Below the pieces are notes generated by a model, which worked only from the letters and a program-made list of their open reading frames with translations, had not been told where the DNA came from and did not search any database. 9,625 bases of DNA from JAMORN01 sp027063545 [NCBI: bacterium] (lineage in GTDB: Bacteria; JAMORN01): the NCBI GenBank assembly GCA_027063545.1, contig JAMORN010000099.1, forward strand, positions 1 through 9,625. The letters are read 5' to 3'. Positions 1 to 9,624 of this stretch are shown here, in pieces; within the stretch, counting starts at the first letter, position 1; every line of letters starts with the position of its first letter. Both the position numbers and the translations under genes were made by a program.

Positions 1-768
1 ATAATTTATTACATCAAACCCTAAAGTTTTTGTAACCGACCCTATAAAAGCATTTGTTGTTATATTAAGAGCTTTCTTTTTATACAAATCCTTAAACATT
101 GGAATAAGCTTCTTTTTACCTTTTCCCCATATCCATATAAAATTAATTTCATTTTTATTATTATCTCTTCTAATTTTATTTACGTTATGATCTTTTAACT
201 CATCTCTAACTATATCTAAAATATCATAAAAAAAAACCGCCCATGTCCCTTTAAAAATATCTTGTTTCTCTATTGTTTTAGTTATAACATCTTCAAAATC
301 ATCAACTATTAATGAATCTATGTCCTCATCTAATACTAATAACATCCTTTGATTAGATATTTTATAAAATCTAATAGGAATGCCTCTAAAATTACCATTA
401 AACCTTTCATTTAATGATGTTATTAATTCATCTGACTCTTCTTCTGAAATATTATCTAAATAATATATTTTCTTACTATTCTCATCATAATAGCAAAAAT
501 CACAAATAAAAGCTGTATCTATTTCTCCTAAAGAAATCCCCAAATTTATACTTTCAAATAATCCTGCTCCATTATAATATTTAGATGGAGAATAACCTAA
601 TAAAGATAAAGTTGTTATATCCTCTCTTATTTTTATACCTTTAACTATAGCATCTAATCTTACTACTTTACCTTCTGCTGCAAATGTATCTATATTTATA
701 GTATAAACATCTTCTCCAACAGGGAAAAATCCAGGAATAACTAAATACATATATTTACGTTTCATCAT
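1..768 (-). CDS. Divergent ApgM-like / 'proposed homoserine kinase' family protein, 3' end cut by window edge
   Basis: The frame is open from ATG 768 to base 1, giving 256 residues without a stop. Complete family members are about 400 residues, so roughly the last third is missing. Family signatures seen are LSLLGYSP (54-61), followed by YYNGAGLFES (64-73), where the family has YYTGRxPLEA; LGISLGEIDTAF (76-87); IRFYKIS with RMLLVL, matching the FYPGVSYRHLLV block; HNVN (194-197); and IWIWGKG (211-217), matching IWLWGQG. The family belongs to the alkaline-phosphatase superfamily and includes cofactor-independent phosphoglycerate mutase; the thr-operon branch has been proposed to be a homoserine kinase. 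Its place directly after hom and thrC fits that role. However, the N-terminal DG metal motif is absent and this segment is shortened (YLVIPGFF at 8-15). PGSD reads IRED (47-50), so Ser becomes Glu49. The PPHD histidine is missing, and the SAVDL aspartate aligns with Ala240. The start is supported by TAGGA 7 nt upstream, and the gap to thrC is 4 nt. Homology is fairly sure; activity is doubtful. Confidence 0.78.
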   Translation of the reverse strand, partial: MMKRKYMYLVIPGFFPVGEDVYTINIDTFAAEGKVVRLDAIVKGIKIREDITTLSLLGYSPSKYYNGAGLFESINLGISLGEIDTAFICDFCYYDENSKKIYYLDNISEEESDELITSLNERFNGNFRGIPIRFYKISNQRMLLVLDEDIDSLIVDDFEDVITKTIEKQDIFKGTWAVFFYDILDIVRDELKDHNVNKIRRDNNKNEINFIWIWGKGKKKLIPMFKDLYKKKALNITTNAFIGSVTKTLGFDVINY

Positions 769-772
769 TTTT

Positions 773-2143
773 TTATCCTAAAAATTTTTTTTCATATTCA
801 TATATAACCTTTTTAATGGACTCTATATTAGCTTCAACATCTACAGGTTGATTAGCCATTTTAGATGTATCTATCTTTCCTTCTCTTATAACATAATTCT
901 TTTCATAATAAGAATGTATATAAAAATTATTTGTATGAAACTCTACAGTATAATCAGGATCCTTTAACAAATTTCCTGTTAATATACCAACTACAAAAGC
1001 ATCTTTATCTATAATTCCTTTTTCTACTAATTTTTTTATTCCTGCAACCGTTGTTGCACTAGCAGGCTCACATCCTATGCCATCCCTTCCTATTATTGCC
1101 TTAGCAAAAGCAATTTCTTCTTCTGTAACCTGTTCTACTATTCCATTTGTAAACTCTATAGTCCTTACAGATTTTTTCCAAGAAACAGGATTTCCAATTT
1201 TTATCGCTGTTGCTCTTGTATATGCTTTTACTGGTTTAAATTCTTTTTTACCTTCTTGAAAATATCTATATAAAGGATTAGCCCCTTCAGCCTGTACCAC
1301 AACAACCTTTGGCAACTTATCTATAAATCCTAAATTATATAACTCCTGTAATGCTTTTCCAAAAGAAGAATTATTCCCTAAATTACCACCAGGGACTACT
1401 ATGTAATCTGGTACATTCCAATCTAACTGATCTAACAATTCTATAATTATTGTCTTTTGACCCTCTAATCTAAAAGGATTGATAGAGTTTAAAAGATAAA
1501 TTCCTAATTCTACAGAGACTCTTTCCACTAATTTCATAGCATCATCAAAATCACCATTAATTCTTAAAGTTAAAGCACCATAATCCAAAGCCTGAGATAA
1601 TTTCCCATAAGCAATTTGTTTTCCTCCAGGTATAAAAACTATAGGAAGCATTCCTGCTCTAGAAGCGTAAGCACTCATAGAAGCAGAAGTATTTCCTGTA
1701 GAAGCACATGCTACCCTATTAAAACCTAATTTTTTAGCCATTGTAGTTCCTGTTGTCATTCCATTATCTTTAAAAGAACCAGTTGGATTAAGACCCTGAT
1801 GCTTCAAAAATAACCTATTTAAACCAGCGTATTTAGCACTCTTTGGAGCATCAAAAACATTAGTATTTCCCTCTGGCATGGTTACAATCTTATCTAAATC
1901 TTTTTCTATATCAATAAATTGAAGAAATTCCCTATATCTCCATACACCTGATAGATCATACTTATTATTTGTTAACCTTCTCTCGCGAAATACCTTCTTC
2001 CAGTACTCTGGATCTATACTACTAGTATCAAATTCATAAACTACATCTAATAGATCTCCACAATCACATCTATATCTTACTTCATTAATATCATATTCTT
2101 TTCCACAGGATATACATTTAAAATAAACTCTATTAATCTTCAT
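773..2143 (-). CDS. thrC: Threonine synthase (PLP-dependent)
   Basis: A 456-residue protein that converts O-phosphohomoserine to threonine and phosphate in the cytoplasm, the last step of threonine synthesis. The N-terminus has a four-cysteine knuckle (Cys10, Cys13, Cys26, Cys28), as in many threonine synthases with the extended N-terminal domain. The PLP-binding lysine is Lys125 in NPTGSFKDNG, a hallmark of fold-type II PLP enzymes. The phosphate/cofactor-binding segment ASTGNTSAS follows, and the glycine-rich loop VPGGNLGN lies in the middle of the protein. The C-terminal GCEPASATT segment also fits the family. ATG 2143 is preceded by AAAGGGG at about 8 nt. The gap to hom is 16 nt and the gap to the downstream ApgM-like gene is 4 nt, so the three form a threonine sub-operon. 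A cysteate synthase or other threonine-synthase paralogue is possible, but the neighbour hom makes ThrC by far the best reading. Confidence 0.94.
   Translation of the reverse strand: MKINRVYFKCISCGKEYDINEVRYRCDCGDLLDVVYEFDTSSIDPEYWKKVFRERRLTNNKYDLSGVWRYREFLQFIDIEKDLDKIVTMPEGNTNVFDAPKSAKYAGLNRLFLKHQGLNPTGSFKDNGMTTGTTMAKKLGFNRVACASTGNTSASMSAYASRAGMLPIVFIPGGKQIAYGKLSQALDYGALTLRINGDFDDAMKLVERVSVELGIYLLNSINPFRLEGQKTIIIELLDQLDWNVPDYIVVPGGNLGNNSSFGKALQELYNLGFIDKLPKVVVVQAEGANPLYRYFQEGKKEFKPVKAYTRATAIKIGNPVSWKKSVRTIEFTNGIVEQVTEEEIAFAKAIIGRDGIGCEPASATTVAGIKKLVEKGIIDKDAFVVGILTGNLLKDPDYTVEFHTNNFYIHSYYEKNYVIREGKIDTSKMANQPVDVEANIESIKKVIYEYEKKFLG
776..780 (-). promoter_or_regulatory. Shine-Dalgarno site of the ApgM-like gene, inside the thrC 3' end
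   Basis: Read on the minus strand, TAGGA ends 7 nt before ATG 768 and overlaps the last codons of thrC. The thrC stop TAA is followed by a short A-run leading straight into ATGATG, so the two genes are probably translationally coupled. The second ATG (765) is possible but further from the site. Confidence 0.55.
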
Positions 2144-2159
2144 ATTTTATACCCCTTTA

Positions 2160-3470
2160 TTATAAGTCCTCTTCTACTCTTAAAATTTGTGGTTCTGATT
2201 CTATAATATCACCTACCAATTCTTTAAATTTTTCTAGGGCTTTTAGCATTATGCCTTCTTTAGTCTTATGAGTTAATATAACTACTGGCACATATTCTCC
2301 ATCTTTTAATTCACCATCTTTTTGAATAACAGCCTTTATAGAAATACCAACATCTCCAAGTATATTTGTTATTTTAGCCAAAACTCCAGGTTTATCTAAA
2401 CTAGAAAATCTTAAATAATACTGGGTTATAATCTCTTCTCTTGGAAGTATCCTTTTTAATTCTCCTCCTCGATGATAAGGTGGAACTCTACCAACAGAAT
2501 TATTTATTATATTTCTTGCAATATCTATAACATCAGATACTACAGCAGAAGCTGTTGGATAACGTCCTGCTCCTTTACCTTTTAAAAGGAGTTCATCTAC
2601 AAAATTACCTTTTATCATAACAGCATTAAATTCATATAAAATAGAAGCTAAAGTACTCTTTGAAGGAATTAATGTTGGATGAACTCTTAATTCAATCCCG
2701 TCTTCTCTATCCCTTGCTATTGCCAATAATTTTACAGTATAACCTAACTCTTCAGCAAATTTAACATCAAGACTTGTTATCTTTCTTATACCTTCGGTTA
2801 TAAAATCTTCCATTTTTACTTCTCTCCAGTATACTAAAGATGCTAGTATTGTTAACTTATGGGCACTATCAATCCCATCTATATCAAAAGTTGGGTCTGC
2901 TTCAGCAAATCCTAATTCTTGAGCTTTTTTTAAAGCTTCTTCAAAACTTAATCCTTCATTCTTCATAGTGGTTAAGATATAATTACAAGTCCCATTTATT
3001 ATTCCAAAAATTTTTTCTATGTTATTGGCTAACATAGCCTCTTTTACTACTTTTATAATAGGAATTCCACCTGCAACCGCCGCATCATAGTATATATCTA
3101 CTTTTTTTTCTATTGCTTTATCAAATATTTCTTTACCATATACTGCTAAAAGAGCTTTATTTGCTGTTACTATATTTTTTCCCATTTCTATAGATTCTAA
3201 TATTAACTTCTTGGCAAAATCATATCCTCCTACTAATTCTATAACTATCTCTATTTCTGGATCATCTACTATCTCCTTATAATTTGTAGTTAAAAGTTCC
3301 TTAGGAACATTCACTCCTCTATCTGTTTCTATATCCAGATCTGCTATCTTTTTTAAATTAATATCAATATCTAAAGTTTTCTTCCATTCTTCTCTCTTTT
3401 TTAGTAGAATATCAGCAACCCCTGCACCTATTGTCCCAAATCCAACTAAACCTACATTTATCTTTTTCAT
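2160..3470 (-). CDS. hom: Homoserine dehydrogenase with C-terminal ACT domain
   Basis: NAD(P)H-dependent reduction of aspartate semialdehyde to homoserine, the branch point to threonine and methionine. It is 436 residues from the preferred start. It has a Rossmann loop GFGTIG (10-15), the TANKALLA block (102-109) with the conserved Asn-Lys, the INGTCNYIL substrate-domain motif (158-166), FAEADPTFDIDG followed by DSAHKLTIL with the candidate catalytic Asp201 and Lys205, and GKGAGRYPTASAV. An ACT domain begins near residue 351 (YYLRFSSLDKPGVLAKI). This domain normally gives feedback inhibition by threonine, so allosteric control is likely. A longer frame starts at ATG 3479 (three extra residues), but AAAGGAG abuts that codon directly. 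The same site lies 9 nt from ATG 3470, so 3470 is preferred. No aspartokinase domain is fused and none lies in the window. It follows ptsI by 19 nt. Confidence 0.95.
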   Translation of the reverse strand: MKKINVGLVGFGTIGAGVADILLKKREEWKKTLDIDINLKKIADLDIETDRGVNVPKELLTTNYKEIVDDPEIEIVIELVGGYDFAKKLILESIEMGKNIVTANKALLAVYGKEIFDKAIEKKVDIYYDAAVAGGIPIIKVVKEAMLANNIEKIFGIINGTCNYILTTMKNEGLSFEEALKKAQELGFAEADPTFDIDGIDSAHKLTILASLVYWREVKMEDFITEGIRKITSLDVKFAEELGYTVKLLAIARDREDGIELRVHPTLIPSKSTLASILYEFNAVMIKGNFVDELLLKGKGAGRYPTASAVVSDVIDIARNIINNSVGRVPPYHRGGELKRILPREEIITQYYLRFSSLDKPGVLAKITNILGDVGISIKAVIQKDGELKDGEYVPVVILTHKTKEGIMLKALEKFKELVGDIIESEPQILRVEEDL

Positions 3471-3479
3471 CCCTATCAT

Positions 3480-3489: not shown

Positions 3490-5262
3490 TTATTTCATTT
3501 TTGGAATATATTTATATAGCTTTAAGTTTATAAATTCTTCTATATCTTTTGAATTATCCATCGTCATTATTTTACTTACAATACTTCTTATATCTTCATA
3601 TTTCACACTTCGTATTATCTTTTTTATATATGGAATACTTCCAACAGCCATAGAAAGCTCATCAACCCCAAAACCTAATAATAAAATAGCAAAAATAAAA
3701 TCACTCGCTATTTCCCCACATACACCAACCTTTACTCCATAAGAATGGGCTACCTCAACAATATTGTAAAAAGTTTTAAATAAACTAGGTTGATATAAGG
3801 AATATAAATCTGTTACATCCTCATTCCTTCTATCTATTGCAAACATAAATTGTATAAGGTCATTTGTACCTATTGAAATAAACCGAATATCTTCGATTTT
3901 CTTTAAAAAATTTTCTAGCATTATAGCTGTACTAGGTATTTCTACCATTATACCAAATTCAATATTTTTATCATCAAATGAATATCCCTGCTCTCCCAAT
4001 TTTGATTTTACTTTATCTATTTCATCTAAAATTTCCTCTACTTCCCATATATCTGTTACAAACGGTACGGATATTCTAATAGTCAAGTTTTCTTTATTCT
4101 TATATTTATATACATCTCCAATAGCTTTATAAATTGCTGTAATCTGCGATCTTAAAATATCCCTATATCTAATTAAATATCTAGCACCTCTTATACCTAA
4201 AAAAGAATTATCTGTTGTTGATGACTCATCAATTATCTTATCTCCTCCAAAATCAAATAATCTTATAGTTAAAAGCCGTTCTTCAGACTCTATTAAAAAT
4301 TTATAAACTTCATATTGGTCTGTTTCGGATAAATTCTCCCTTAAATTTGTTAAATATATATATTCTGACCTAAAAAGTCCTACACCTTCTGCACCATATG
4401 AACTAGTGTGAGTAATTTCCCAAGGAAGTTCAATATTTGAAAGTAATGTTAATTTTTTACCATCAATAGTAATAGGTTGTAAATTTCTTAAGCTTTTTAA
4501 TTCTTCTTGTTGTCGCTCATATACAATTTTTATTTCATTATATTTTTTTAAATCACTATTATTAGGATTTACAATAATTTTCCCATTTATAGCATCTAAA
4601 ATTGTAAAATCTTCGTTATTAACCTCTTTATATATTCCTTTACATCCTACAATTCCAGGAATTTCTAGAGATTTAGCTATTATAACAGAATGGGAAGTTA
4701 AACTCCCCTCTTCTAAAATAAATCCCTTTATATTCCCTAATAAAAAATGCACAATATCACTGGGATATAATTCTTTTGCTACAATTATAGGTTTATCTTC
4801 ACTTTTACTTTTTTTATTCTTATATAATCCACCCTGAAGATATGATATTATAATTTTTCTTATATCTTTTAAATCTAAAACTCTTTCCTTTAAATAAAAA
4901 TCTTTTACCTGTTCTAGTTTATCAATATATTCCTCTATAACCTCATAAGTAGCCCATATGGCATTATATTTCTTTTCTCTAATTAAATCTTCAATCTGTT
5001 TCAAAAGGACTTCATCTTCAAGAAGAGCTAGCTGAATTTTTAAGATATCTGATATTGCTGGAAAAGCTTCGGCTTTAGACTTTATATCGCTTTTTATTTT
5101 TTCTAAAGTCTTATAAAAAAATTTTACTTCCTTTTCTATTCTTTTTTCACCAATATAAAATCTTGTCGGAAGAACATCGCCCCCTGAGAACTTATAGATA
5201 TTTCCAAATACTATTCCATAGGATGCAGAGATCCCCTTATAAACCCTTCTTTTATTCTTCAT
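3490..5262 (-). CDS. ptsI: PTS Enzyme I, phosphoenolpyruvate-protein phosphotransferase
   Basis: A cytoplasmic 590-residue protein, of usual length, that takes phosphate from PEP onto a histidine and passes it to HPr. The N-terminal part (about 1-150) is the HPr-binding domain, opening with YKGISASYG. The phospho-histidine is His191 in LTSHSVIIAKSLEIPG; just before it the usual GGxTSH reads G-S-L-T-S-H. The PEP-binding barrel shows EGVGLFRSEY, LFDFGGDK, FLGIRGARYL, IMVEIPSTA, ISIGTNDLIQF with AIDRRNED, and VGVCGEIASD with the catalytic Cys near 515. All expected catalytic motifs are present, so the protein should be active. No fused GAF domain is present, so it is the sugar-type EI architecture rather than PtsP. 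ATG 5262 lies inside ptsH with an 11-nt overlap and no clear Shine-Dalgarno site, implying coupled translation. No Enzyme II gene is visible in the window. Confidence 0.96.
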   Translation of the reverse strand: MKNKRRVYKGISASYGIVFGNIYKFSGGDVLPTRFYIGEKRIEKEVKFFYKTLEKIKSDIKSKAEAFPAISDILKIQLALLEDEVLLKQIEDLIREKKYNAIWATYEVIEEYIDKLEQVKDFYLKERVLDLKDIRKIIISYLQGGLYKNKKSKSEDKPIIVAKELYPSDIVHFLLGNIKGFILEEGSLTSHSVIIAKSLEIPGIVGCKGIYKEVNNEDFTILDAINGKIIVNPNNSDLKKYNEIKIVYERQQEELKSLRNLQPITIDGKKLTLLSNIELPWEITHTSSYGAEGVGLFRSEYIYLTNLRENLSETDQYEVYKFLIESEERLLTIRLFDFGGDKIIDESSTTDNSFLGIRGARYLIRYRDILRSQITAIYKAIGDVYKYKNKENLTIRISVPFVTDIWEVEEILDEIDKVKSKLGEQGYSFDDKNIEFGIMVEIPSTAIMLENFLKKIEDIRFISIGTNDLIQFMFAIDRRNEDVTDLYSLYQPSLFKTFYNIVEVAHSYGVKVGVCGEIASDFIFAILLLGFGVDELSMAVGSIPYIKKIIRSVKYEDIRSIVSKIMTMDNSKDIEEFINLKLYKYIPKMK

Positions 5263-5518
5263 AGAATTTTGCTTCGAATAATTTTAAAATAGCCTCAACA
5301 GCTTCCTTCTCATCTTCTCCCTCCGCTCTTATAATTACTTCAGCACCTGGAGGGATTGCTAAAGTAATCATTTCAATAACACTCTTTGCATTTACTTCTT
5401 GATTATTATATATAAGACTTATCTTAGACTTATATTTCATTGCTTCTTCTCTTACTCGTGTAGCTGGCCTAGAATGAAATCCCACCTTATTTTTTACAAT
5501 AGCCTTTGTTTCAACCAT
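5252..5518 (-). CDS. ptsH: HPr phosphocarrier protein
   Basis: An 88-residue protein of typical HPr length. It accepts phosphate from Enzyme I on His15, in the motif GFHSRPAT (13-20), and passes it on to Enzyme IIA-type partners. Ser46 lies in NAKSVIEMITLAIPPG, the position phosphorylated by HPr kinase in organisms that have HprK, so Ser-phosphorylation control is possible; hprK itself is not in the window. The gene sits downstream of rpoN and hpf, where proteobacteria carry npr, the nitrogen-PTS HPr. A role in a regulatory PTS is therefore as plausible as sugar uptake. The upstream site is weak (AAGG about 12 nt before ATG 5518). The gap to the MCE gene is 6 nt, and the stop overlaps the start of ptsI by 11 nt. 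Confidence 0.94.
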   Translation of the reverse strand: MVETKAIVKNKVGFHSRPATRVREEAMKYKSKISLIYNNQEVNAKSVIEMITLAIPPGAEVIIRAEGEDEKEAVEAILKLFEAKFYEE

Positions 5519-5524
5519 ATATTT

Positions 5525-6448
5525 TTACAACCTTAATCGTACTTTTATACCCTTTGAATCTAAATAATAATACAATAACGAATCAACTTTACTTTTCAAT
5601 TCTAAAATATCATAATATAAACTATCATCCTTTACTAATTTTCCTACTGTACCCTCCCCACTATTAATGTATGTTAAAATACTATCTAATGAAGAGGATA
5701 TACTCTTTGCTGAAGACATTAACTCTTTTGTATCTGTTGTAATAGTATCCAAATTGGATATTATATTCATTATATTATCCATCTTAGAGTTTAGCTGCGT
5801 TAATAATAACCTTAAATCTCTCACTGACTTATCTGTATTTACTATTATTCTATTAATTCTCCTTTTATTAGTAGATAAAATATTATTTAAATTTTCAGAT
5901 GTATAAGTTAAATTATCTATAATTTTTGAAAAATTATTAGAAAATTCTTCTTTCGCAACAGTACTATCCAAAACTTTTTTTACTAAAACTAATAAAGTAT
6001 CAACTTTATCTATTAAAAATCCTATACTACCTAAAGCCTCCCCTATACCCGTATGATAAATGCCTGAATATTCTTTTTTAGGATCTAAATAATTCTCTGA
6101 ATTCCCTAGTTCAATAGATATCATTCTCTCACCCATTATTCCCATAGATTCCACATAAAATTTGGAATCATCTGGAATTTTATATTTAGAATTTATTTTT
6201 AATGTAACTAATACATCTTTATATCTTAGTTTAATACCATCAACCTTTCCAACTTTTACTCCCGAAACCCTAACTGGATCTCCTACAGTTAAAGTACCTA
6301 CATTTTTAAAACTAACATTTATTATATAAAAATCTTCCCCTGGTTTATAATTCTTCAAAAACAAAATACTTAAAGTTAATATTACCACAGAAACTATAAT
6401 TATTAAAGTCACCAAAACCTTTTGTTTGGCTTCTTCCTCAAAAGTCAT
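5525..6448 (-). CDS. MCE/MlaD family outer-membrane lipid transport protein
   Basis: A 307-residue protein with one N-terminal membrane helix (about 11-31) after a short charged cytoplasmic stretch, then a single MCE domain (about 40-125). The MCE core reads FKNVGTLTVGDPVRVSG (47-63), followed by VKVGKVDGI. The C-terminal half is mostly predicted helix rich in Asn, Ser, Leu and Ile, and ends with GEGTVGKLVKDDSLYYDILEL (264-284), a segment common in MlaD-like proteins of the single-helix type. Such proteins form periplasmic rings that carry phospholipids between the inner and outer membranes, working with an MlaE permease and MlaF ATPase. Neither partner gene is in the window, so the partners must be encoded elsewhere. 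The start is ATG 6448, with AGGAG about 10 nt upstream inside hpf. The gap to hpf is 2 nt. Confidence 0.88.
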   Translation of the reverse strand: MTFEEEAKQKVLVTLIIIVSVVILTLSILFLKNYKPGEDFYIINVSFKNVGTLTVGDPVRVSGVKVGKVDGIKLRYKDVLVTLKINSKYKIPDDSKFYVESMGIMGERMISIELGNSENYLDPKKEYSGIYHTGIGEALGSIGFLIDKVDTLLVLVKKVLDSTVAKEEFSNNFSKIIDNLTYTSENLNNILSTNKRRINRIIVNTDKSVRDLRLLLTQLNSKMDNIMNIISNLDTITTDTKELMSSAKSISSSLDSILTYINSGEGTVGKLVKDDSLYYDILELKSKVDSLLYYYLDSKGIKVRLRL

Positions 6449-6450
6449 GT

Positions 6451-6783
6451 CTATTTTTCTCCTAATATTTCTTCCAGTTTACTAATAGATATCTTTTCTA
6501 TATGATGAACCTTATCATTATATTTTTTTAATTGAGTTAATAATTTATGTAAAGCATCATGAAAAGCTTTTGTTAAATATTCTGCTTTTGTAGATGCTAT
6601 AAAATCTTTATGGTGAGAATGAATCATTATTTCAACCTTAAACTCATGTTTAATTTTTTCTACTATAACAGTTGCTCCTTTTGCTCCCTCTACATATGGA
6701 ACTATCTTTTGTAATTCTTCTTTTATTACTTCTTCTGCTTCTGGTTTAATTTCAGTATGTCTTATTGTTATTTTTACATCCAT
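6451..6783 (-). CDS. hpf: Ribosome hibernation promoting factor, short form (HPF/RaiA family)
   Basis: A 110-residue protein with the single-domain beta-alpha-beta fold of the sigma-54 modulation / S30AE family. It begins MDVKITIRHTEIKPE and has the alternating strand pattern around VIVEKIKHEFKVEIMIHSHH, then the helix AFHDALHKLLTQLKKYND. It binds the small ribosomal subunit near the mRNA channel and promotes inactive ribosomes during slow growth or starvation. The C-terminal dimerisation domain of long-form HPF is absent. Its place directly after rpoN is the classic one, from which the family got its old name as a sigma-54 modulator. ATG 6783 has a strong GAGGAG site at 5 nt spacing. The 70-nt gap upstream is the only sizeable one in the window and could hold a separate promoter. 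Confidence 0.93.
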   Translation of the reverse strand: MDVKITIRHTEIKPEAEEVIKEELQKIVPYVEGAKGATVIVEKIKHEFKVEIMIHSHHKDFIASTKAEYLTKAFHDALHKLLTQLKKYNDKVHHIEKISISKLEEILGEK

Positions 6784-6853
6784 ACTTACTCCTCTTTTTA
6801 TGGTTGTTAAATTTTCTCTTACTTTAGTAAAATAAATTATTTAATAAAATCTC
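6784..6853 (-). other. Intergenic gap before hpf, the only sizeable non-coding stretch
   Basis: These 70 nt between the rpoN stop and the hpf start are very AT-rich and end with the hpf Shine-Dalgarno site (AAGAGGAG). An imperfect 12-bp dyad with arms TTACT/AGTAA around two bases lies at 6819-6830. It is too tight to be a terminator hairpin and could at most be an operator. No convincing -35/-10 pair or sigma-54 -24/-12 element was found by eye. Confidence 0.3.
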
Positions 6854-8302
6854 TCAATATTTTTTTCTCATTCTAGCTGGTGGAATTCCTAATTCATCCC
6901 TATATTTAGCAACAGTCCTTCTTGCTATTTTTATATTTTTGGAATTTAAAATATTTGCTATTTTTTCATCACTTAATGGTTTTGACTTATCCTCATTTGC
7001 TATAATCTCTTCTATCATTTTCATTACCTCTTTAGCTGAAATATCTTCTTCTTTTTCACTATCATCTTTTGGCAATGAAGTGGAAAAAAAATCTTTTAAC
7101 TTATACATTCCATAAGGGGTTAATATATATTTTGAATTTATAGCTCTACTTACAGTTGCTGTATGGACACCTATCATTTCTGCTATATCAGCTAATGTCA
7201 TAGGCTTTAAGCCTTCTCCTTTCTCAAAAAAATCTTTTTGATATTCTAATATAGCTTTTGCCACTTTTTGTAAAGTTTCTCTTCTTTGCTTTATAGAATT
7301 AATTATAAAATTAGCCTTTTCATATTTCTGAGCCAAAAATTCTTTAGCTTTTCTATCATTTTTTGAATTTATAGAATCCTTATATTTTTTATTTATTTTT
7401 AATTTAGGTAAAAATCCTTCATTAATCTCTACTATCCATTCTCCTTTATCATCTTTTCTAACAATTATATCAGGCTCTACATATTTATATTCATCTAAAG
7501 ATGAGGTATATTTTTGGCCCGGATAAATTGGATATTTTGTTATTTCTTTTATCACCTCTTCTATTATTTTCACTGGCCTGTCTAGTTTTCTTGCCAAATC
7601 TCTTATTTTTCTCTTTTTAAAATCATCATAATATTTTTCTATTATTTCATAATGAAGAGTATTCTCCTTACCATCTGCTTCTAATTGAGCAAGCAGTGCT
7701 TCTCGAATGTCTCTAGCACCACAACCTGTTGGTTCTAATTTCTGAATTTCTTTTAGTATTTTCTCTATCTTTTCAATGTTATCTTCCATATTTAATTGTC
7801 TTGAAATTTCCTCAATAGGTAATGTAAGAAATCCATTATCATCAATATTTCCAATAATAAACTCTGCTATTTTCTTATCTTCCTCAGAATCAAATCTTAA
7901 ATTTGCCTGTTCCAATAAATGCTCTTGTAAGCTTTTCGAATTTTTCACAAATCTTTCTATTTCATATTTTTCCTCATCTTCCTTTGTGATTCTTTCTTGT
8001 AAATATGATGTATCATACTCTTCTAATTCATAACTATCTTCTATTACATCCCACTCTACTTCTTCTTTATCCTCTTTAATCTCTAGCTCTTTTTCTGGAT
8101 CCTCATATTTTTGCTCCTCTATAACTCCCTCAGTCTCTTTAAAATCCTCATCCAACTCTAAAACAGGATTTTCCTCTAATTCATTTTTAATTTCTTGCTC
8201 TAAACTTTGAATATTCATTTGTAAAAGTTTTAAAGCATTAATCTGTTGAGGTGCAATTCTTTGTTCTAATCTTTGTTGTTGACTTTGTCTTATATCTAAC
8301 AT
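6854..8302 (-). CDS. rpoN: RNA polymerase sigma-54 factor
   Basis: A 482-residue protein, of normal length for sigma-54. Region I is the Gln/Leu-rich N-terminus (QSQQQRLEQRIAPQQINALKLLQM, residues 6-29), which contacts enhancer-binding AAA+ activators. Region II (about 50-118) is a strongly acidic linker. The core-binding domain follows with FIIGNIDDNGFL (148-159) and LEPTGCGARDIREALLAQL (189-207). A helix-turn-helix lies near 369-392 (TLADIAEMIGVHTATVSRAI). The RpoN box that reads the -24 element is ARRTVAKYRD (460-469), matching the ARRTVAKYRE consensus except for the final Glu to Asp change. The protein directs polymerase to -24/-12 promoters; its activators are not in the window. ATG 8302 is preceded by AAGGAAG. 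It follows lptB by 13 nt, as in many diderm bacteria. Confidence 0.97.
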   Translation of the reverse strand: MLDIRQSQQQRLEQRIAPQQINALKLLQMNIQSLEQEIKNELEENPVLELDEDFKETEGVIEEQKYEDPEKELEIKEDKEEVEWDVIEDSYELEEYDTSYLQERITKEDEEKYEIERFVKNSKSLQEHLLEQANLRFDSEEDKKIAEFIIGNIDDNGFLTLPIEEISRQLNMEDNIEKIEKILKEIQKLEPTGCGARDIREALLAQLEADGKENTLHYEIIEKYYDDFKKRKIRDLARKLDRPVKIIEEVIKEITKYPIYPGQKYTSSLDEYKYVEPDIIVRKDDKGEWIVEINEGFLPKLKINKKYKDSINSKNDRKAKEFLAQKYEKANFIINSIKQRRETLQKVAKAILEYQKDFFEKGEGLKPMTLADIAEMIGVHTATVSRAINSKYILTPYGMYKLKDFFSTSLPKDDSEKEEDISAKEVMKMIEEIIANEDKSKPLSDEKIANILNSKNIKIARRTVAKYRDELGIPPARMRKKY

Positions 8303-9045: not shown

Positions 9046-9624
9046 TTAATTTCTCTTTATTTTTATTATCTTCCCTTCTATAGCACCTTCTAAATTCATT
9101 TTTATTGGTTTTGATTCTTTAAATTTTACAAAAAAAGAATCACACGTTACTATATTAAGCCATTCTACTTTTTTTTCTATTTTATATATACCCAATTCTG
9201 CTTGAACGTAAACTTTTAATATATTAATGTTGTTATTTTCAAAATCTATAAACGCCTCTTCTCCTTTAAAATAATTTTTTTTATCTATATTTTCATTAGT
9301 ATATAAGTAGTAAACTACATTTTTTTTGATAATAATATTTTTTATTATATTTGAATCTAACAGGCTTATATTTAATGTATCTCCAAAAAAATCTCCATAT
9401 TCAATTAAAGAATCTCTCTTAATTCTTTTATAGTTTCCCTTAATCTCACCTATAATTAACACATTATTTATATTAGAATTTTTAAAATTAATCCTCATAA
9501 AGTCGCCTGTTAATATATAGATTAAGCTGTCATTTTTACTATTTACATAAACATTTTTAAATAATTTTAAAGAATCCAGAGTTCTTGTTTTCCTATTAAA
9601 ATATCCTATTATAAATTTTGAGGT
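9046..9624 (-). CDS. OstA/LptA-like periplasmic protein, 5' end cut by window edge
   Basis: The frame ending at stop 9046-9048 stays open to the right edge, so at least 192 residues are visible and the true start lies outside. ATG 9498 is internal: the codons before it read on without a stop, and a repeat unit (see 9181-9507) begins three codons upstream of it. The visible protein is made of roughly 40-residue beta-strand repeats of the form G-D/E-x3-I-x-hydrophobic, then Asn-rich turn, then Ile/Val-rich strand, then Tyr. This is the pattern of OstA/LptA/LptC beta-jellyroll domains, which bind LPS in the periplasm. The place directly before lptB is where lptA normally lies. No signal peptide can be assessed because the N-terminus is missing. 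Assignment rests on repeat pattern and context; LptA, LptC or a general OstA-like protein cannot be separated. Confidence 0.62.
   Translation of the reverse strand, partial: TSKFIIGYFNRKTRTLDSLKLFKNVYVNSKNDSLIYILTGDFMRINFKNSNINNVLIIGEIKGNYKRIKRDSLIEYGDFFGDTLNISLLDSNIIKNIIIKKNVVYYLYTNENIDKKNYFKGEEAFIDFENNNINILKVYVQAELGIYKIEKKVEWLNIVTCDSFFVKFKESKPIKMNLEGAIEGKIIKIKRN
9181..9507 (-). repeat. Three degenerate ~40-residue beta-repeats within the OstA-like protein
   Basis: Repeat units start at 9507 (GDFMRINFKNSNINNVLIIG), 9384 (GDTLNISLLDSNIIKNIIIK) and 9264 (GEEAFIDFENNNINILKVYV). The spacing is 123 and 120 nt, or 41 and 40 residues. Each has Gly-acidic, a strand, an Asn-rich turn, a second strand and a final Tyr. 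This is protein-level structural repetition; the DNA itself is not an obvious tandem repeat. Confidence 0.55.

What the first reader, a model, noticed from the sequence alone, without database searches (positions are those of the whole stretch)
1..768. Putative pseudoenzyme of the ApgM / proposed homoserine kinase family in the threonine operon
The gene keeps many family landmarks (LSLLGYSP, YYNGAGLFES, HNVN, IWIWGKG). It appears to have lost most residues expected for phosphotransfer in the part visible: no N-terminal DG metal motif, Glu49 for the PGSD serine, no PPHD histidine, and Ala240 for the SAVDL aspartate. The reading frame is intact over 256 codons with a good ribosome site, so it looks maintained rather than decaying. 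It may be a regulatory or scaffold partner of ThrC/Hom, one half of a heteromer with an active paralogue, or an enzyme with different chemistry. The consensus comparison is from memory of the family, not an alignment run here.
Basis: partly seen in the sequence, partly recalled or inferred. Interest (0 to 1): 0.72.

Follow-up and report, generated by a model that had tools for sequence, protein, structure and literature searches.

The report
Dead enzyme kept in threonine operon
A gene in a bacterium's threonine-making cluster has lost the readable part of the active site of its supposed enzyme family but still looks maintained, and a family of marine nitrifying bacteria keeps a similar inactive-looking version, which raises doubt about how these bacteria carry out one step of threonine synthesis.

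Summary
Window 1-768 (-) is the first 256 codons of an ApgM/ThrB2-type protein (PF10143, 84 bits), directly after hom and thrC and cut by the contig end. Of 120 aligned homologues outside the window and Nitrospinaceae, 120 keep the metal Asp and 120 the Ser/Thr nucleophile; the window has Pro12 and Glu49 and lost two near-invariant Arg. The C-terminal metal ligands lie off the contig. No active paralogue and no known homoserine kinase was found in the MAG (82.7% complete), and no near relative in the collections searched. Nitrospinaceae carry another degenerate form: 42 of 43 full-length sequences lack five to seven of seven catalytic residues (the other, partly masked, four of five readable), 43 of 43 precede lysC-cimA, dN/dS is 0.06-0.17 in 12 chosen pairs. 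Three such genomes tested have no ThrB over cut-off. Operon-linked homologues elsewhere rarely coexist with ThrB (4 of 75 genomes against 109 of 311). Most likely these are retained pseudoenzymes with a non-catalytic role in the aspartate-family pathway; the role is inferred. Whether the two forms share an origin is unresolved. A new variant of a known family, bearing on the open 'missing homoserine kinase' question.

The parts
1..768 (-). apgM/thrB2-like pseudoenzyme gene, codons 1-256; the C-terminal part (~145 codons in relatives) is off the contig
733..735 (-). codon 12, Pro where 120 of 120 other homologues have the metal-binding Asp of DG
   Evidence: codon read
706..723 (-). approximate place (codons 16-21) of a ~10-residue deletion that removes the TPLE segment
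   Evidence: alignments
622..624 (-). codon 49, Glu at the place of the Ser of PGSD (Ser/Thr in 120 of 120 others)
   Evidence: codon read
565..567 (-). codon 68, Ala for the GRAP Arg (Arg in 120 of 120 others)
505..507 (-). codon 88, Ile for the CRCN Arg (Arg in 119 of 120 others)
292..294 (-). codon 159, Glu for the PPHD His (His in 104 of 120 others)
   Evidence: codon read
49..51 (-). codon 240, Ala for the SAVDL Asp (Asp in 97 of 120 others)
   Evidence: codon read
776..780 (-). TAGGA, Shine-Dalgarno-like, inside the end of thrC; the ATG follows the thrC stop by 4 bases
   Evidence: sequence
773..2143 (-). thrC, threonine synthase with N-terminal Cys-rich segment
   Evidence: TIGR00260 257.8 bits, cut-off 167.1; best solved chain 1e5x
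2160..3479 (-). hom, homoserine dehydrogenase with ACT domain
   Evidence: PRK06349 519.6 bits, cut-off 205; PF00742, PF03447, PF01842

Best explanation
The gene encodes a retained pseudoenzyme: a ThrB2/ApgM-type protein of the hom-thrC operon that lacks the first metal Asp and the residue that would carry the phosphate, so it should not transfer phosphate by the alkaline-phosphatase-superfamily route. Shown: loss of the N-terminal catalytic residues, family membership, operon position, acceleration relative to Hom with the frame still open, and another degenerate form kept under strong purifying selection in Nitrospinaceae. Inferred: that the product works as a non-catalytic part of the pathway. 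The most likely way is as a binding or scaffold subunit that uses the retained cap domain (the best-predicted part of the model) to hold a pathway ligand or to dock Hom/ThrC (LysC in Nitrospinaceae), while another, unidentified protein phosphorylates homoserine. Glu49 could imitate the phosphoserine state; that is speculation.
For: Family: PF10143 84.3 bits, cut-off 21.5; TIGR00306 141 and TIGR02535 120 bits on the truncated protein; the AlphaFold model's six significant PDB matches are all chains of 3idd, 3kd8 and 2zkt. Catalytic loss: against 120 of 120 other homologues. In print, the zinc sites of a phosphoglycerate mutase structure are fully conserved in BT2402, the genetically implicated member (PMC9765024, parts 1 and 2 of 3 of the text). 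Change relative to Hom: the window protein is at a median of 26.3% to homologues of other loci (22 pairs) against 46.0% between those loci (224 pairs; 7 more failed the length filter), while Hom is 44.7% against 43.8%; 0 of 224 pairs are as discordant. Maintenance: no stop in 256 codons (chance 2.7e-13 for random sequence of this composition) and GC1>GC2>GC3 as in the neighbours, on an end branch of 2.4 changes per site against a median of 0.47. Precedent: Nitrospinaceae, 42 of 43 full-length sequences lack 5-7 of 7 catalytic residues and one lacks 4 of 5 readable; dN/dS 0.06-0.17 in 12 of 12 pairs that I chose among 30 sequences; 43 of 43 are followed by lysC and cimA.
Against: The C-terminal half with five metal-site residues is unseen. 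No near relative of the window gene exists in what was searched, so its own selection is not measured. No known homoserine kinase was found in the MAG, which would fit the gene still doing that job by other means. Nothing here shows binding to Hom, ThrC or a ligand. Two of the losses (PPHD His, SAVDL Asp) also occur in otherwise intact homologues (16 and 23 of 120). The comparison done with ThrC in place of Hom does not single out the window gene (210 of 465 other pairs are as discordant).
Confidence: 0.6

Rival explanations
1. The protein is still the homoserine kinase (or another phosphotransferase of the pathway) with changed chemistry, for example a nucleophile-free transfer from a donor to homoserine in a rebuilt site.
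For: No ThrB over cut-off, no APH-type and no shikimate-kinase-type match in the MAG, while ThrC passes the threonine-synthase cut-off and needs O-phosphohomoserine (established knowledge). The gene sits beside the genes for the steps before and after homoserine kinase. Family members elsewhere seem to replace ThrB: 4 of 75 genomes with an operon-linked homologue also have ThrB, against 109 of 311 others.
Against: Metal Asp, nucleophile and two near-invariant Arg are gone; the Nitrospinaceae form has lost most of the centre too. The MAG is 82.7% complete, so a kinase may be missing from it, as the shikimate kinase also seems to be.
Confidence: 0.17
2. The gene is in relaxed decay: a former ThrB2 on its way out in a fast-evolving, AT-rich lineage.
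For: Very long end branch (2.4, 5.3), unusual letter make-up flagged by the tree tool, no relative of this exact form found.
Against: Frame open for 256 codons and coding-like codon-position composition; cap-domain landmarks kept; start 4 bases after thrC with a ribosome site; Hom of the same operon is not accelerated.
Confidence: 0.12
3. One half of a heteromer with an active paralogue encoded in the missing part of the genome.
For: 17% of the MAG is missing; 7 of the 58 other genomes of the first sample carry two or three family members.
Against: Only one PF10143 and no PF01676 match in the genome. In Nitrospinaceae 43 of 46 genomes match the degenerate protein and only two have a second match: one gene split over two contigs (G428) and one extra N-terminal fragment (G426).
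Confidence: 0.06

Closest known systems
ThrB2 / TIGR02535 'proposed homoserine kinase' (BT2402 of Bacteroides thetaiotaomicron)
   Same: Same family by profile; next to hom and thrC; by genome distribution it replaces ThrB (PMC9026213 and PMC7311316, passages)
   Different: BT2402 keeps the zinc sites (PMC9765024); the window protein has lost the metal Asp and the nucleophile and scores below the family cut-off, though it is truncated
Archaeal-type cofactor-independent phosphoglycerate mutase ApgM (PDB 2zkt, 3kd8, 3idd)
   Same: Fold and sequence relatives
   Different: The Ser and the first metal Asp are absent in the window protein
Degenerate ApgM of Nitrospinaceae (described here)
   Same: Family, loss of the catalytic centre, place in an aspartate-family operon, no TIGR00191 ThrB over cut-off in three of three genomes looked at
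   Different: Different substitutions (Asp->Ala/Asn/Ser, Ser->Asn), next to lysC-cimA instead of thrC, 23-27% identical to the window protein

Membership tests
ApgM/ThrB2 family (PF10143, TIGR00306) | profile match over the PF10143 cut-off | tested here: met
   84.3 bits, cut-off 21.5
ApgM/ThrB2 family (PF10143, TIGR00306) | TIGR00306 whole-protein cut-off (320 bits) | tested here: inconclusive
   141 bits on a truncated protein; five full-length degenerate Nitrospinaceae proteins scanned reach 296-398, four of five over the cut-off
Active cofactor-independent mutase / phosphotransferase | DG metal Asp | tested here: not met
   Pro12
Active cofactor-independent mutase / phosphotransferase | Ser/Thr nucleophile | tested here: not met
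   Glu49
Active cofactor-independent mutase / phosphotransferase | C-terminal metal ligands (PDEAGH, PDH, KTHT) | not testable with these tools
   off the contig; not found elsewhere in the assembly
TIGR02535 proposed homoserine kinase | curated cut-off 446.3 bits | tested here: inconclusive
   120.4 bits, truncated; five of five degenerate Nitrospinaceae proteins scanned are also below it (268-362 bits)
TIGR02535 proposed homoserine kinase | neighbourhood with threonine genes and no ThrB in the genome | tested here: met
   genome 82.7% complete
TIGR02535 proposed homoserine kinase | homoserine kinase activity | not tested
   needs the bench. PMC7311316 (passages) calls it uncertain for BT2402; PMC9765024 calls BT2402 'the alternative homoserine kinase' without new data in the parts read

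The most novel reading that the evidence does not exclude
The role of the ThrB2/TIGR02535 family in threonine synthesis does not depend on its phosphotransfer centre: it is an accessory or allosteric part of the pathway, the chemistry is dispensable, and two lineages have dropped it while keeping the protein. The true homoserine kinase of many bacteria would then be another, unknown protein. This would also explain why BT2402 is needed for threonine in B. thetaiotaomicron yet did not rescue an E. coli thrB mutant.
Probability: 0.12. Interest if true: 0.85.

Novelty: new variant of a known kind. Interest (0 to 1): 0.6.

Why it matters
Of 148 prototrophic microbes examined by GapMind, 29 lacked a recognised homoserine kinase and 15 of these have the putative replacement TIGR02535, whose activity that paper calls uncertain (PMC7311316, passages). 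Operon-bound family members that have lost the catalytic centre, one of them across a family of nitrite oxidisers whose member N. gracilis can be grown in a more defined sea-salt medium with vitamin B12 (PMC8026999, passages), show that presence of the gene cannot be taken as presence of the activity, and give natural mutants with which to separate catalytic from non-catalytic roles.

Tried and rejected
Shifted catalytic residues: rejected by alignments and phmmer. Second half of the gene on another contig: PF01676 and a 13-row C-terminal profile found nothing in the genome; as controls PF01676 detects three of three degenerate Nitrospinaceae proteins and rings in 13 of 14 control genomes; the profile itself had no control. 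Close relatives: a scan of genome contigs with the window protein (six exact peptide patterns) found none, the phylum search held only the window's own genome, and the best-scoring match in 386 genomes was 34% identical. One shared origin of the two degenerate forms: unresolved. A 95-row tree puts the window gene among other, intact members (SH-aLRT 89), a 36-row tree of hand-picked rows restricted to its span joins it to the Nitrospinaceae (87); both are open to long-branch attraction, and the AU test on the large set did not finish. ThrC as a second yardstick of acceleration failed to discriminate. A ThrC that needs no phosphohomoserine: made unlikely, as it passes the thrC cut-off. Promoter scan: 52 sites, shuffles 60.5.

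What was left out of counts: in the 386-genome search 197 genomes had a match, four of them the window's own and three Nitrospinaceae. I read 120 homologues from 112 of the other 193, mostly the higher-scoring; the rest were not read and count as 'others'. Three duplicate rows were removed. For the 95-row tree four rows (L029, L066, L092, L115), rows over 60% identical and all but ten Nitrospinaceae were dropped. One of the 75 operon-linked homologues (L092) has a stop in its frame and lies in one of the four genomes that also have ThrB.

Full report
WHAT IS THERE. The window is one whole contig (G000:C99, 9625 bases) of a 1.57 Mb genome in 355 contigs, 82.7% complete, the only held member of its phylum. 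The main genes are all on the minus strand: an ORF without a Pfam match (9624-9046), lptB, rpoN, hpf, mlaD, ptsH, ptsI, hom, thrC and the finding. The finding, 768 to 1, is an open frame of 256 codons cut by the contig end, its ATG 4 bases after the thrC stop with AGGA seven bases upstream.

FAMILY. PF10143 matches at 84.3 bits, TIGR00306 apgM at 141 and TIGR02535 'proposed homoserine kinase' at 120 bits; the last two are under their cut-offs, as expected for about 60% of a protein. Solved relatives are 2zkt, 3kd8 and 3idd. An AlphaFold model with 24 sequences has mean pLDDT 81, over 90 in much of the cap domain and under 60 in residues 1-50; its six PDB matches at E <= 0.001 are all chains of these entries.

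LOST RESIDUES. I aligned the window protein with 123 distinct homologues from a 386-genome sample. Leaving out three Nitrospinaceae, 120 of 120 have Asp in the DG motif, 120 of 120 Ser (116) or Thr (4) at the nucleophile, 120 the GRAP Arg, 119 the CRCN Arg, 104 the PPHD His and 97 the SAVDL Asp. The window has Pro12, Glu49, Ala68, Ile88, Glu159 and Ala240 there, and a deletion of about ten residues in the TPLE segment. So four losses are at near-invariant places; the last two also vary among intact members. That the DG Asp is a zinc ligand in a mutase structure and is kept in BT2402 is in PMC9765024 (parts 1 and 2 of 3 of the text); roles of the other residues are recalled from cofactor-independent mutases. 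The C-terminal ligands cannot be read, and no other piece of the gene was found in the assembly.

MAINTAINED OR DECAYING. The window gene has an end branch of 2.4 changes per site against a median of 0.47. Its Hom is as close to other Homs (median 44.7%) as they are to each other (43.8%), whereas the ApgM-like protein is at 26.3% against 46.0%; none of 224 other pairs is as discordant. The same comparison with ThrC does not discriminate (210 of 465). After so much change a frame with no stop in 256 codons and coding-like codon-position composition argues for selection on the protein, but no relative is close enough for dN/dS.

ANOTHER DEGENERATE FORM. Three sampled genomes, G005, G153 and G293, carry a full-length family member without most catalytic residues. 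In their family 43 of 46 genomes match it, including 20 of 20 at 90% or more completeness and at most 5% contamination. A scan of GTDB genomes gave 45 loci, titled Nitrospina, Nitrospinaceae, Nitrospinia, Nitrospinae or Nitrospinota, with one titled Nitrospirae. L161 (LFLA01000026, 65,077 bases) has the contig length and the protein of G005:C18, so I call the group Nitrospinaceae; some titles give no family. Of 43 full-length sequences 41 lack the metal Asp, 38 lack the Ser, none shows PDEAGH Asp or His (one is masked there), none has the PDH Asp, 42 lack the last His, and 41 keep the PDH His. Forty-two lack five to seven of the seven; the masked one, L169, lacks four of five readable. All 43 are followed by lysC, with overlap in 31, and then cimA; the other two loci end at the contig end. 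dN/dS (NG86) is 0.06-0.17 in 12 of 12 pairs that I chose among 30 sequences. A model of L203 (pLDDT 88.6) matches 2zkt best (TM 0.73). So members of this family without the catalytic centre can be kept under strong selection in an aspartate-family operon. The window form differs in its substitutions and is 23-27% identical to this one. Trees do not settle whether they share an origin.

WHO PHOSPHORYLATES HOMOSERINE. Of the 120 other homologues, 75 have hom, thrC, lysC or cimA within about 0.9-1.5 kb. They lie in 75 genomes, 4 of which have TIGR00191 ThrB over its cut-off, against 109 of the 311 remaining genomes (Fisher p 3e-8; genomes are not independent, and one of the four, G257, has a stop in the homologue's frame). 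This agrees with the published view of ThrB2 as a replacement for ThrB (PMC9026213 and PMC7311316, passages). The window genome has no ThrB match at 1e-15; its two GHMP kinases score best as HddA (454 bits, under the 600 cut-off) and IspE (over cut-off), and 50-56 bits as ThrB against a cut-off of 168. APH-type and shikimate-kinase-type families give no match at 0.01, though the lack of any shikimate kinase also shows how incomplete the MAG may be. G005, G153 and G293 have no ThrB over cut-off (G153 has one weak match, 1.6e-16). Ten of ten Nitrospinaceae genomes searched have two thrC-like genes; in the three thrC1 loci that I read, a gene that I read as hom lies directly upstream. APH-type and shikimate-type kinases were not searched in Nitrospinaceae. 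N. gracilis grows in a more defined sea-salt medium with vitamin B12 (PMC8026999, passages), so it presumably makes threonine.

MECHANISM. Transfer by two metals and a phosphoserine should not be possible without the first metal Asp and the nucleophile (inference from the superfamily mechanism, recalled). I think a non-catalytic part in the pathway most likely: ligand binding or docking through the retained cap domain. This step is inferred. The main rival is changed chemistry, which the missing kinase speaks for. The bold reading is that the family's pathway role never depended on phosphotransfer; BT2402 being needed for threonine yet not rescuing E. coli thrB (PMC7311316, passages) leaves room for it, but conservation of the centre in 120 of 120 other homologues speaks against it.

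IN PRINT. Searches of the open PMC library showed no paper on a degenerate ThrB2/ApgM among the titles listed; some lists were capped (10 of 318, 10 of 16, 8 of 125), and most subscription papers are not held. Papers were seen as passages, except parts 1 and 2 of 3 of PMC9765024.

Noticed in passing
window 773-2143 (-): ThrC has an N-terminal Cys-rich segment and its best solved match is plant threonine synthase 1e5x; it is further from the thr-locus ThrCs compared (median 43.8%) than those are from each other (64.6%).
   Followed up: partly
window 9046-9624 (-): ORF of 192 codons (5' end open) upstream of lptB with no Pfam match; by position a candidate lptA/lptC-type gene (recalled context, untested).
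   Followed up: no
window 3490-8302 (-): ptsH and ptsI overlap by 11 bases and sit between hom and mlaD-hpf-rpoN-lptB, which looks like a nitrogen-PTS/sigma-54 cluster (recalled) next to a threonine operon.
   Followed up: no
G000 (own genome): No PF01676, APH or shikimate-kinase match in the MAG, so a usual iPGM and AroK are also missing or undetected.
   Followed up: partly
L021, L027, L030, L062, L064, L065, L068, L069: A subgroup of ApgM homologues with Gly after the nucleophile Ser and Glu for the PDEAGH His; they form one branch in the 95-row tree.
   Followed up: no
L206, L213, L215 and L217, L224, L225: Nitrospinaceae carry two thrC-like genes (10 of 10 genomes): in the loci read one follows a hom-like gene, the other follows a cysteine-synthase-like gene and lies near a MoeB/ThiF-like gene (names from my reading).
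   Followed up: partly
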